NCBI GenBank assembly: GCA_003649185.1
Contig: QMRB01000003.1
Location: forward strand, 1 to 64,000
Reading direction: 5' to 3'
DNA from: Thermoproteota archaeon
GTDB lineage: Archaea > Thermoproteota > Methanomethylicia > Culexarchaeales > B10-G16
Length of the DNA: 64,000 nucleotides
Part shown: in pieces, positions 30,252 through 56,872 of the stretch
Layout of the letters: every line of letters starts with the position of its first letter
Position numbering within the stretch: the first letter of the stretch is position 1
Translations under genes and position numbers: made by a program
The notes under the pieces: model-generated
The model's input: the letters and a program-made list of their open reading frames with translations, nothing else
Database searches by the model: none
What the model was told of the DNA's origin: nothing

Positions 30252-30725
30252 ATGGGAAGACTGTTAGCGATAATTAGGATTAGAGGAACTGTTGGAGTAA
30301 GCGGAGAAATCAAAGACACATTGAAAATGTTGAGACTGAATAGGAGAAACCATGCTACATTAATAGATGACAGGCCAAGTTATATTGGAATGCTTAAAAA
30401 AGCAGCAGAATATGTAACGTGGGGAGAGATAGATCTTGAAACCCTTGAACTATTGCTTAGAAGGAGAGGAGAATTAAAGGGAGGAAAAAAACTTACAGAC
30501 GAATATGTAAAGGAAAAGTTGAAGTTGAACGGGATAAGGGAACTTTCAGAAAAATTGTTTAAAGGAGAATTAAAACTTGAACAATTATATGATATTAAAC
30601 CGATATTTAGACTACATCCACCTAGCGGCGGCTTTAAGGGATCCGTAAAGAAACACTTCAAAGCTGGAGGGGAGCTTGGATATAGAGGAAGAAAGATAAA
30701 CGAACTTATAAGAAAAATGTGCTGA
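30252..30725 (+). CDS. rpl30: 50S ribosomal protein L30
   Basis: Archaeal long form, 157 residues. [40 protein letters not shown], the tail [18 protein letters not shown] and [16 protein letters not shown] are diagnostic. Normally followed directly by L15; here another gene intervenes. Confidence 0.95.
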
Positions 30726-30738
30726 GAGGAGAGGAGAA

Positions 30739-31194
30739 ATGGATGACAACTGGCTTCACTGGTTTAATAGAAAGAGAAATATGAGCATTCATGATGAGCT
30801 TAACAAAGCAATATTTAAAATGATGAATAGAATATTTAACGATGAAGAGGGGAAGCCTACAATATATGGTGGATGCATGTTTGAAGAATTCTCCAAAATA
30901 GAAATGGAAACAAGAAGCCTAGAAGAAATATATAAAGGTATGGATGAACCTTTAGTAGATATTTTAAACGATAAGAAAAGAGTTTTAATTTACATGGAGA
31001 TTGCTGGAAGAGGGAATAATATAAATATAAAAGCTGAAGAGAAGAAGATAACTGTATATTTAAACTTTAAGAAATATGTTGAAATTAAATTGAAATGTAA
31101 AATTAAACCTGAAAGCATTAAAGCTGAATATAGAAATGGCGTCCTAGAGATAATTGCTGAAAAAGAATCATGGTGGGGTCAAGCATGGTTGTGA
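30739..31194 (+). CDS. Alpha-crystallin/Hsp20-like protein inside the ribosomal operon
   Basis: A 151-residue protein between L30 and L15. The C-terminal half has the shape of an alpha-crystallin or CS domain (DEPLVDILNDKKRVLIYMEI, NIKAEEKKITVYLN, then SIKAEYRNGVLEIIAEKE, where the strand RNGVLEI matches Hsp20). The N-terminal half is unrecognised. It lacks a C-terminal I-x-I anchor. It starts 13 nt after L30 and overlaps L15 by 10 nt, so it is coexpressed with ribosomal proteins; a chaperone role in ribosome assembly is an inference. Confidence 0.72.
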   Translation: MDDNWLHWFNRKRNMSIHDELNKAIFKMMNRIFNDEEGKPTIYGGCMFEEFSKIEMETRSLEEIYKGMDEPLVDILNDKKRVLIYMEIAGRGNNINIKAEEKKITVYLNFKKYVEIKLKCKIKPESIKAEYRNGVLEIIAEKESWWGQAWL

Positions 31195-31625
31195 GGAGAA
31201 GGCGAAAGATAAGGAAGTATAGGGGTACACGGACATGTGGTTATGGAATAACAGGGCAGAATAGAGGTAAAGGATTGAAGGGAGGATACGGCAAGTCTGG
31301 TAGACATAAACATTTATGGACATGGGTGATGAAATATCAGCCAGACTACTTTGGCAAGAAAGGATTTAAACCGCCTCTCAGCCTCAGAGAAAAGGTGAAA
31401 CCGATAAATCTTGGACAATTAGATCAGATTGTAAGAAAATTGACTAAGAGTGGAGAGCTTAAAATCATAGATGGAAAGATAACGATCAACGTTTTAAGAC
31501 TCGGCTACAATAAAGTTTTAGGAGGAGGAAAGCTGACGAAACCCATTATAATTGAATCACCAAGCTTCTCAAAAAAGGCTGAGGAGAAGATCGCTCAAAT
31601 TGGAGGAAAGGCGATTAAATTATAA
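31185..31625 (+). CDS. rpl15: 50S ribosomal protein L15
   Basis: Archaeal L15 of 146 residues: RRRRKIRKYRGTRTCGYG, GRGKGLKGG-like GKGLKGGYGKSGRHKHLW, and PINLGQLDQIVRKL. I place the start at 31185, inside the end of the preceding gene, behind GGTGGGG. SecY follows after 33 nt. Confidence 0.95.
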   Translation: MVVRRRRKIRKYRGTRTCGYGITGQNRGKGLKGGYGKSGRHKHLWTWVMKYQPDYFGKKGFKPPLSLREKVKPINLGQLDQIVRKLTKSGELKIIDGKITINVLRLGYNKVLGGGKLTKPIIIESPSFSKKAEEKIAQIGGKAIKL

Positions 31626-31658: not shown

Positions 31659-33071
31659 ATGCCGAGACTAGTAGAAATAATGGAACCGTTGGCTAGATTT
31701 CTCCCAGAAGTATCAAAACCAAAAAGAAAACTCACACTTAGAGAAAGGTTGATTTGGACAGGGGTAGTGCTCACCATTTATTTTGTGATGAGTCAAACTC
31801 CTCTATATGGCCTTGTAAGGGGCGCTGGATACGATCCATTTCTATATATGAGAATGCTCTTTGCCTCTAAGAGAGGAACATTAATGGAGCTTGGGATAGG
31901 GCCAATAGTTACTGCAGGATTGATAATGCAGCTACTTGCAGGGTCAAAGCTTATAGACATCGACCTCTCAGATCCTAAAGACAGAGCCCTCTTCACAGCA
32001 TCACAGAAGTTGATGGCTATCATTTGGGGAGGAATACAAGCCATAGCATATATTTTAGGAGGAGCATTCGGCCAACTGACACCTGGAATCGCCATACTTG
32101 TATTTGCACAACTATTATTTGCAACTATAGTGGTTATGCTTTTAGATGAGATGGTTCAGAAGGGTTGGGGGATTGGAAGCGGGGTCAGCCTGTTTATAGC
32201 GGCAGGAATATCTCAACAGATAATATGGCAGATCTTTTCACCCATATATGCAAATGATGGAAAATATTTGGGAGCCATTCTAGCATTCATCCAAACATTG
32301 ATGAGAGGAGAAGGTATCGTCAATGCTTTTATAAGGCGTGGATCACTGCCAAGCATGACAGGACTAATATTAACCATAATAATATTCATGATTACAATCT
32401 ATCTTGAAGGGATGAGAATTGAGATACCTGTCGCTTTAGCTAGATATAGAGGAATAAGAACGAAGATTCCGCTGAAATTTCTATATGTATCAAACGTTCC
32501 AATAATATTTACATCGATGCTTCTAGTCGATATAAAGATAATATCTCTGTTGATTTGGAGACAATTCAACCCTGCAAATACAGTTACACTATTAAATTGG
32601 ATTGGAATGTTCAATCAGACTACAAATCAACCGATTGGAGGATTAGCATATTATGCAACTCCGCCTAGAGGGTTAACCTCGGTAATGCAGGATCCAGTTC
32701 ACGCATTAATTTACAGCATAATTTTAACAATATTCTCGGTGATATTTGCAGTGATATGGGTGGAAGCATCCGGGTTAAGTGCAAAAGAACAAGCTAGCCA
32801 ACTGGTTCAATCGGGACTGCACATTCCCGGATTTAGAAGCTCGCCGAAAATAATTGAAAGTGTACTTAAAAAGTACATTCCAGCACTTACAATTCTAAGC
32901 GGAATAATAGTGGCGGTGATAGCTGCAGTAGCAGACATTATGGGAGCTATAGGATCTGGAATGGGAATACTGTTAACCGTTGGAATAATATATCAGTATT
33001 GGAGCATACTTACCCAAGAACAGATAGAGGAATTATATCCAGTTGTCCGTAGAATAATGGGTGAAAAATAG
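31659..33071 (+). CDS. secY: Protein translocase subunit SecY
   Basis: Central pore of the Sec translocon, 470 residues with ten membrane segments. Features: plug region after TM1 (PLYGLVRGAGYDPF), GIGPIVTAGLIMQLLAGSKL, the loop GMRIEIPVALARYRGIRTKI and the C-terminal loop SQLVQSGLHIPGFRSSPKII that contacts ribosomes. Standard position after L15. Confidence 0.97.
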   Translation: MPRLVEIMEPLARFLPEVSKPKRKLTLRERLIWTGVVLTIYFVMSQTPLYGLVRGAGYDPFLYMRMLFASKRGTLMELGIGPIVTAGLIMQLLAGSKLIDIDLSDPKDRALFTASQKLMAIIWGGIQAIAYILGGAFGQLTPGIAILVFAQLLFATIVVMLLDEMVQKGWGIGSGVSLFIAAGISQQIIWQIFSPIYANDGKYLGAILAFIQTLMRGEGIVNAFIRRGSLPSMTGLILTIIIFMITIYLEGMRIEIPVALARYRGIRTKIPLKFLYVSNVPIIFTSMLLVDIKIISLLIWRQFNPANTVTLLNWIGMFNQTTNQPIGGLAYYATPPRGLTSVMQDPVHALIYSIILTIFSVIFAVIWVEASGLSAKEQASQLVQSGLHIPGFRSSPKIIESVLKKYIPALTILSGIIVAVIAAVADIMGAIGSGMGILLTVGIIYQYWSILTQEQIEELYPVVRRIMGEK

Positions 33072-56432: not shown

Positions 56433-56446
56433 AAGAGGTGGAAATC

Positions 56447-56872
56447 ATGTGGAGAATAATAGAAGATATTGAAAGAATGAAGAGGAAAATGGAGAGGATA
56501 ATGGCTGAATTGGCCGCTGAAATTGAGAAGCCCATGTGGGATTATAGAACGAAATGTCTTGAACCTCTTGTAAGTGTGAAAGAGGGAGAGGAAAACATAA
56601 CAGTAACCGTGGATCTCCCATGTGTAGAGAAAGAGAACATAAAATTATACGCTACGGAAAGAACCCTCACCATACAGGCAACTCTAAAAGAAGAGTATAG
56701 ATCGAGAAGGATGGGCATCACAAGAGAGGAAGTTAGCTTTGAACATTTCAAAAAAGTGATCGAGCTTCCTAAGGATGTTATCCCGGAAAAGGCGAAAGCA
56801 AAATTTAAAAATGGAATTTTAGAGGTAATTCTCCCAAAGAAGATAAGTGGAAGGGAAATAAGAATAGAGTAA
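56447..56872 (+). CDS. hsp20: Small heat-shock protein Hsp20
   Basis: 141 residues with an alpha-crystallin domain: EPLVSVKEGEENITVTVDLP, ENIKLYATERTLTIQATLK, KKVIELPKDVIPEKAKAKFK and NGILEVILPKK. The C-terminus REIRIE provides an I-x-I-like anchor. ATG at 56447 after AGGTGG; a GTG at 56438 is also in frame. Holds unfolding proteins until refolded or degraded. Confidence 0.92.
   Translation: MWRIIEDIERMKRKMERIMAELAAEIEKPMWDYRTKCLEPLVSVKEGEENITVTVDLPCVEKENIKLYATERTLTIQATLKEEYRSRRMGITREEVSFEHFKKVIELPKDVIPEKAKAKFKNGILEVILPKKISGREIRIE

What the first reader, a model, noticed from the sequence alone, without database searches (positions are those of the whole stretch)
30739..31194. Alpha-crystallin-like gene inserted between L30 and L15
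L30-L15-SecY is one of the most conserved archaeal gene orders. Here a 151-residue protein with an Hsp20-like C-terminal domain is wedged in, with a short spacing to L30 and a 10-nt overlap with L15. Strict coexpression with ribosomal proteins hints at a dedicated assembly or nascent-chain chaperone. A separate canonical Hsp20 is encoded at 56.4 kb.
Basis: inference. Interest (0 to 1): 0.55.

Follow-up and report, generated by a model that had tools for sequence, protein, structure and literature searches.

The report
Small heat-shock gene in ribosome operon
Between two ribosomal-protein genes of this archaeon lies a real, fast-changing small heat-shock chaperone gene, and the same kind of gene occupies the same place in many Asgard archaea and in several other archaeal lineages, so it looks like an old built-in partner of the ribosome operon rather than a one-off insertion.

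Summary
Confirmed. ORF 30739-31194 (151 aa) starts 13 nt after uL30 and overlaps the uL15 start by 10 nt. AlphaFold gives a confident alpha-crystallin sandwich; the nearest solved fold is Sulfolobus Hsp20.1. The archaeal Hsp20 model matches at E 6e-15, below its cut-off.

It is not a one-off. Hsp20 sits directly upstream of uL15 in 24 of 90 loci of the window's phylum (10 of 38 families), 36 of 70 Asgard loci and 15 of 80 named loci (overlapping, non-random samples). Where uL30 has gone, Hsp20 can stay with uL15. One clade of operon copies is not rejected (p-AU 0.48); close pairs are under purifying selection. Most operon copies lack the C-terminal IXI oligomer motif (53 of 73; other Hsp20s 7 of 61), through few events. 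In six of sixteen genomes checked it is the only Hsp20.

The window copy is fast and shortened; the sister family lacks it. Best reading: an old, ribosome-coupled, probably dimeric holdase. Action on ribosomes is unproven. Hsp20 in this cluster was already reported for some Asgard genomes and attributed to horizontal transfer (PMC10833476).

The parts
30739..31194 (+). Hsp20/alpha-crystallin-like protein, 151 aa; helical N-part (1-67), alpha-crystallin domain (about 70-143), short tail ESWWGQAWL without an I-x-I/V motif
30726..30738 (+). spacer with Shine-Dalgarno-like GAGGAGAGGAGAA between the uL30 stop and the ATG
31185..31194 (+). 10-nt overlap of the Hsp20-like stop with the uL15 start (ATGGTTGTGA)
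30252..30725 (+). uL30 (L30)
31185..31625 (+). uL15 (L15), start at the second ATG of the listed ORF
31659..33071 (+). SecY
56438..56872 (+). second Hsp20 of the window (144 aa), a different subfamily with a longer loop in the alpha-crystallin domain and an I-x-I tail (REIRIE)

Best explanation
The gene is the window lineage's copy of an old Hsp20 paralogue whose place is the uL30-Hsp20-uL15-SecY stretch of the archaeal spc operon. Because it shares that operon it should be made in proportion to ribosomes and SecY rather than only on heat shock. Its domain folds as an alpha-crystallin sandwich. Most operon copies, this one included, lack the C-terminal I-x-I motif that links sHSP dimers into large oligomers, so it most likely works as a dimer or small assembly that is always active: an ATP-independent holdase for newly made, unfolded or orphan chains during growth, handing them on to other factors. 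Shown here: gene, fold, recurrent position, motif loss, purifying selection on the relatives tested. Inferred: coexpression, dimeric state, holdase activity, client type. In the window lineage itself the copy is diverging fast, so its role there may be reduced or altered.
For: Fold: residues 71-140 pLDDT >90 with seven strands; best fold match S. solfataricus Hsp20.1 domain 4rzk, E 1.1e-5, also the best sequence match. Recurrence: Hsp20 directly upstream of uL15 in 24 of 90 phylum loci, 36 of 70 Asgard loci, 15 of 80 named loci; 10 of 38 families and 22 of 76 genera of the phylum sample, 10 of 10 loci of family f10. Stability: 8 phylum loci with at least 1.4 kb of upstream DNA keep Hsp20 next to uL15 although uL30 is not within reach. 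One-clade constraint for 47 operon rows against 25 others costs 0.32 lnL, p-AU 0.482. Selection: 15 of 17 within-group pairs gave a finite NG86 omega, 0.03-0.23. Motif: 53 of 73 operon copies lack I-x-I/V, 7 of 61 others do. In 6 of 16 genomes the operon copy is the only Hsp20 (positions compared). Precedent, passages read in PMC9133787: dimeric SsHsp20.1 protects substrate; [quoted passage not shown]
Against: No expression, ribosome or chaperone data. The window copy fails both curated Hsp20 cut-offs, has the longest operon branch (2.2-2.4), and the gene is absent from the sister family f3, with uL30-uL15 directly adjacent in 5 of 5 f3 genomes. Codon usage gives no sign of high expression, though the test hardly separates r-protein from other genes. 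20 of 73 operon copies keep the I-x-I motif, so a tailless dimer is not the rule for the whole group. Tail state needs only 4-8 changes on the trees, and the independent-pairs test had too few pairs.
Confidence: 0.45

Rival explanations
1. Parking: a general-purpose small heat-shock protein that merely profits from a strong constitutive operon; no functional tie to ribosomes, uL15 or SecY.
For: Other Hsp20 genes in the same class sit beside unrelated genes: a CDC48-like ATPase, a TIP49-like ATPase, nitrilase-like and ABC-transporter genes (gene names read from sequence, recalled). Many close relatives lack the operon copy and keep another Hsp20. N-parts of Asgard and tailed operon copies are not more basic than those of other Hsp20s.
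Against: The position is kept across several lineages of Thermoproteota and in Asgard, Hsp20 stays with uL15 where uL30 is out of reach, and it is the only Hsp20 in 6 of 16 genomes.
Confidence: 0.3
2. Dedicated chaperone of uL15 or SecY, or a ribosome-bound factor: the protein acts on the products of the neighbouring genes or on the ribosome itself.
For: Hsp20 follows uL15, not uL30, when the operon breaks. In 12 Bathyarchaeia-type operon copies the up to 60 residues before the domain carry a median net charge of +17 (range 11-22), against +3 in 54 other Hsp20s, which suggests RNA or ribosome binding there.
Against: The window copy has net charge -5 in its first 70 residues; Asgard copies are near neutral. 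uL15 has no such neighbour in 28 of 38 families sampled. SecY follows uL15 about as often without Hsp20.
Confidence: 0.15
3. Lineage-specific decline: in the window's family the old operon copy is under relaxed constraint, overprinted at its end by the uL15 initiation region, and on its way to the loss already seen in family f3.
For: 38% identity to the Culexmicrobium operon copy against 65-73% for neighbours and 71% for the canonical paralogue; deletion around the YGFSxxxGPDGKP motif; tail codons coincide with the uL15 start region; absent from 5 of 5 f3 genomes.
Against: The frame is intact over 151 codons, the alpha-crystallin fold is predicted with high confidence, and window against Culexmicrobium still gives omega about 0.3, though dS is near saturation.
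Confidence: 0.3
4. Repeated horizontal transfer or independent insertions of different Hsp20 genes into the same slot, as suggested for Asgard genomes in PMC10833476.
For: That paper's suggestion. The tree is poorly resolved: 58 of 129 inner branches open, operon label needs 6 changes on the best tree.
Against: Starred branches force only one change and one clade is not rejected. A set of 27 non-operon rows forms a supported branch with no operon copy inside. Repeated hits on the same slot need a special cause.
Confidence: 0.12

Closest known systems
Hsp20 in the S10-spc cluster of Asgard archaea (PMC10833476, 2023; abstract, passages and section 3.1 read, figures not held)
   Same: Hsp20 (COG0071) as an extra gene in the S10-spc ribosomal cluster of four Thorarchaeotes and one Odinarchaeote
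   Different: The text read does not state the slot or the missing tail. The words Bathyarch and Korarch do not occur in it. It proposes horizontal transfer; the data here do not reject one origin.
Archaeal Hsp20 family NF041800 / Sulfolobus Hsp20.1 (4rzk)
   Same: Best family (E 6e-15), best sequence and fold match in the PDB; same short alpha-crystallin domain
   Different: Window copy is below the family cut-off, lacks part of the GPDGKP motif region and any I-x-I tail, and lies in the ribosomal operon
Hsp14 / Hsp16.5-type archaeal small heat-shock proteins
   Same: Alpha-crystallin sandwich
   Different: Those have a longer loop inside the domain, as the window's second Hsp20 does (the general statement is recalled), and the I-x-I motif matters for their oligomers (PMC9133787 passages)
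CS-domain (p23/Sgt1/NudC) proteins
   Same: Same sandwich; Foldseek hits 2jki, 2o30, 6gxz
   Different: Pfam CS not met for the window copy (14.6 bits, cut-off 21.3); the operon relatives score as Hsp20 first

Membership tests
HSP20 / alpha-crystallin superfamily | alpha-crystallin beta-sandwich | tested here: met
   (pLDDT >90 over residues 71-140)
HSP20 / alpha-crystallin superfamily | G-x-L signature near the last strand (AEYRNGVLEI) | tested here: met
   (N133 invariant, G134 nearly invariant among 40); motif name recalled
HSP20 / alpha-crystallin superfamily | Pfam PF00011 score over the curated cut-off | tested here: not met
   window 17.2 of 20.8 bits; operon relatives L034, L051, L308, L113, L110 are over it
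Archaeal Hsp20 equivalog NF041800 | score over the curated cut-off of 140 bits | tested here: not met
   window 55.2, L051 87.5; met by L034, L308, L113, L110
Oligomer-forming small heat-shock proteins | C-terminal I-x-I/V motif | tested here: not met
   tail ESWWGQAWL
Oligomer-forming small heat-shock proteins | holdase activity and oligomer size | not testable with these tools
   no experiment available
spc-operon-linked Hsp20 (as in Asgard) | Hsp20 gene directly upstream of uL15 | tested here: met
spc-operon-linked Hsp20 (as in Asgard) | common ancestry with the other operon copies | tested here: inconclusive
   one clade not rejected with or without the window row (p-AU 0.48 and 0.44); window row on a long branch
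CS-domain proteins | Pfam PF04969 over cut-off | tested here: not met
   14.6 of 21.3 bits

The most novel reading that the evidence does not exclude
A dimeric Hsp20 was fixed in the spc operon before Asgard and the Thermoproteota lineages separated and serves as a standing co-translational holdase made in step with ribosomes: a functional counterpart, built on the alpha-crystallin fold, of the ribosome-associated trigger factor that archaea lack (recalled). In Bathyarchaeia it gained a strongly basic arm and may bind the ribosome outright; in the window lineage it is diverging to a new or fading role.
Probability: 0.15. Interest if true: 0.8.

Novelty: new variant of a known kind. Interest (0 to 1): 0.5.

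Why it matters
Small heat-shock proteins are textbook stress proteins. A copy built into the ribosomal operon over a wide part of archaea, the only Hsp20 found in some Asgard genomes and mostly without the oligomer motif, would point to a housekeeping role in protein synthesis. It gives a clear set of proteins to test, and it questions the published suggestion that the Asgard cases are horizontal transfers.

Tried and rejected
Frameshift or annotation artefact: rejected, since the frame is intact, aligns along its length with relatives, and uL15 begins inside its last codons, leaving no room for a lost tail in another frame.

CS-domain/p23 protein: considered because of the Foldseek and weak Pfam hits; not met at the cut-off.

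Link to the lack of Hsp70: tested with PF00012 in 41 genomes. Hsp70 is not found in the window genome (76% complete) or in the f2, f4 and f7 genomes with an operon copy, but is present in the f6 carriers G013, G027, G034 and in G040, so it is not a rule.

Codon usage as a sign of expression: uninformative.

Statistical link of tail loss with operon place: counts differ strongly, but related sequences dominate and the independent-pairs test found at most 6 pairs, so no significance is claimed. The reduced tree (72 of 132 rows) was made after dropping long branches, distant subfamilies and near-copies seen. In the 132-row tree two operon fragments under 100 aa (L101, L111) were left out.

Weak points of the survey: loci were taken from the best uL15 matches (one search listed places for only the best part of 391 positive genomes; 30 automatic loci plus 60 chosen by me for family and genus spread), and from 30 automatic plus 40 chosen Asgard loci of 144 positive genomes; the three sets overlap in genomes and must not be added. 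The profile used to find Hsp20 was built from copies that include operon ones. Euryarchaeota were not surveyed; three loci titled Aenigmatarchaeota (L087, L116, L144) had no Hsp20 there.

Empty literature search: 'Hsp20' with 'ribosomal protein operon'. The searches showed only PMC10833476 on this gene order (listings seen); no claim beyond those searches.

Full report
Observation. The ORF at 30739-31194 is real. It starts 13 nt after the uL30 stop behind a strong purine-rich ribosome-binding sequence, and its stop overlaps the uL15 start by 10 nt. Pfam HSP20 matches below the cut-off (17.2 of 20.8 bits). NCBIfam's archaeal Hsp20 model matches at E 6e-15, also below its cut-off. The second Hsp20 at 56.4 kb is confirmed. 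The genome (76% complete) has a third, full-length Hsp20 on another contig, the closest to the query.

Organism. The nearest named locus is Candidatus Culexmicrobium profundum (uL15 63%; lineage). Contigs of the tool-defined class match, by length, records titled Nezhaarchaeota WYZ-LMO8 (110470 bases) and Methanosuratincola subterraneus (692614 bases), so the class corresponds to Methanomethylicia in GTDB terms (inference; the GTDB name is recalled).

Structure. AlphaFold with 40 operon sequences gives mean pLDDT 74, above 90 over residues 71-140, with seven strands; the N-part (1-67) is partly helical and of lower confidence. Foldseek's best PDB hit is the Sulfolobus solfataricus Hsp20.1 domain, followed by Hsp14.1 and CS domains; sequence search agrees on 4rzk.

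Recurrence of the position. In 41 relatives, Hsp20 lies between uL30 and uL15 in G000, G001, G013, G027, G034 and G040, and directly upstream of uL15 in G007, G010, G014, G016 and G020, where uL30 lies elsewhere. A scan of named genomes by uL15 gave 80 loci, 15 with Hsp20 directly upstream: Culexmicrobium, a Nezhaarchaeote, a Methanomethylicota, several Bathyarchaeota, several Nitrososphaeria or unnamed archaea, and one Thermoprotei-labelled contig. In the phylum sample it is 24 of 90 loci, 10 of 38 families and 22 of 76 genera, with 10 of 10 in f10. In the Asgard sample, the phylum of Ca. Baldrarchaeum yapensis, it is 36 of 70 (lineage). The samples overlap and are not random. Loci titled Sulfolobales, Desulfurococcales, Ignisphaera or Vulcanisaeta in the named set had none. 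Spacing to uL15 is mostly short: 39 of 46 measured gaps lie between 0 and 45 nt; the window is at -10.

Linkage. In 9 phylum loci Hsp20 is next to uL15 with no uL30 within reach; 8 of these have at least 1.4 kb of upstream sequence. So the bond is with uL15 (and SecY behind it) more than with uL30. SecY follows uL15 about as often without Hsp20.

History. From 82 operon hits in the uL15-anchored loci, 72 distinct copies remained, plus one added by hand (L011); 61 non-operon copies were kept after dropping one at a contig edge (L022). On the full tree (132 rows) the operon label needs 6 changes against 43.8 on shuffles, and starred branches force only one; a branch of 27 non-operon rows is supported and holds no operon copy. 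On a reduced tree (72 rows) holding all 47 operon rows together costs 0.32 lnL, p-AU 0.482; without the window row p-AU 0.443. This fits one old origin with many losses but does not prove it. Within-group pairs show strong purifying selection: omega 0.03-0.23 in the 15 of 17 pairs with a finite dS.

The missing tail. Operon copies from most Asgard and Nitrososphaeria-labelled loci stop right after the last domain strand; Bathyarchaeia f10-type copies end in a tail without the motif; the window ends in ESWWGQAWL, whose codons coincide with the uL15 start region. By regular expression 51 of 73 operon copies lack I-x-I/V; with two chance-like matches (L207, L210) reassigned, 53 of 73; among others 7 of 61 lack it, three that the expression could not parse (L252, L271, L347) being counted as having it after reading their ends. 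These are few evolutionary events (8 changes in the full tree, 4 in the reduced one), so no significance is claimed. [quoted passage not shown]

The operon copy can be the only Hsp20. Among 16 genomes searched with PF00011, six Asgard genomes (G441, G468, G494, G515, G527, G539) have a single match, at the uL15 locus. MAG incompleteness is a caveat.

Charge. In 12 Bathyarchaeia-type copies the stretch before the domain has a median net charge of +17, against +3 in 54 other Hsp20s, -2.5 in 21 Asgard tailless copies, -1 in 19 tailed operon copies and -5 for the window. Ribosome binding is therefore suggested for that branch only.

The window copy. Identity to the Culexmicrobium operon copy is 38%, against 65% (uL30), 66% (uL15), 73% (SecY) and 71% for the canonical paralogue. 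It lost part of the YGFSxxxGPDGKP region. The sister family f3 lacks the gene in 5 of 5 genomes. Decline or altered function in this lineage is a serious rival.

Prior work. PMC10833476 (abstract, passages and section 3.1 read) reports Hsp20 in the S10-spc cluster of four Thorarchaeotes and one Odinarchaeote and suggests horizontal transfer. No other paper on it came up in the searches.

Verdict. A real gene, and a divergent member of a recurrent, probably old, operon-linked Hsp20 group. Mechanism committed to: ribosome-coupled, probably dimeric holdase (0.45 overall; position and family more certain than mechanism).

Noticed in passing
L039, L041, L042, L044, L045, L047, L049, L050, L154, L170, L199 (uS5 gene upstream of uL30; not in the window): In 11 loci of tool families f4, f7, f45 and f57 the uS5 gene is interrupted at the same codon boundary (QTD|AGE) by an insert of 19-34 nt with in-frame stops. 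Ends and fold resemble an archaeal bulge-helix-bulge intron (for example ACGG-AUA-GCCC..GGGC-CCGU-AAG), and excision at the usual cut points (recalled) would restore the reading frame; 161 other sequence hits, duplicates included, are uninterrupted. It would be a very short intron in a universal ribosomal protein gene; one literature search (listing only) showed the known archaeal Cbf5 case.
   Followed up: partly
L042, L044, L045, L047, L049, L050 (family f7): In f7 genomes uL30 is followed, about 0.5 kb on, by a second Hsp20 and a CDC48-like gene (names recalled), while the operon Hsp20 stays with uL15 elsewhere. The operon may have broken by recombination between two Hsp20 genes.
   Followed up: no
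L026, L028, L029, L030: In four f6 genomes the non-operon Hsp20 lies directly upstream of a TIP49-like ATPase gene (name read from sequence, recalled).
   Followed up: no
L141:2664-4910: In Ca. Benthortus lauensis a 749-residue ORF that looks secreted, on the opposite strand, separates uL30 from uL15.
   Followed up: no
L088:1650-2168: In archaeon S4B6_HD70 a 173-residue YbaK/ProX-like ORF (name recalled) lies between uL30 and uL15.
   Followed up: no
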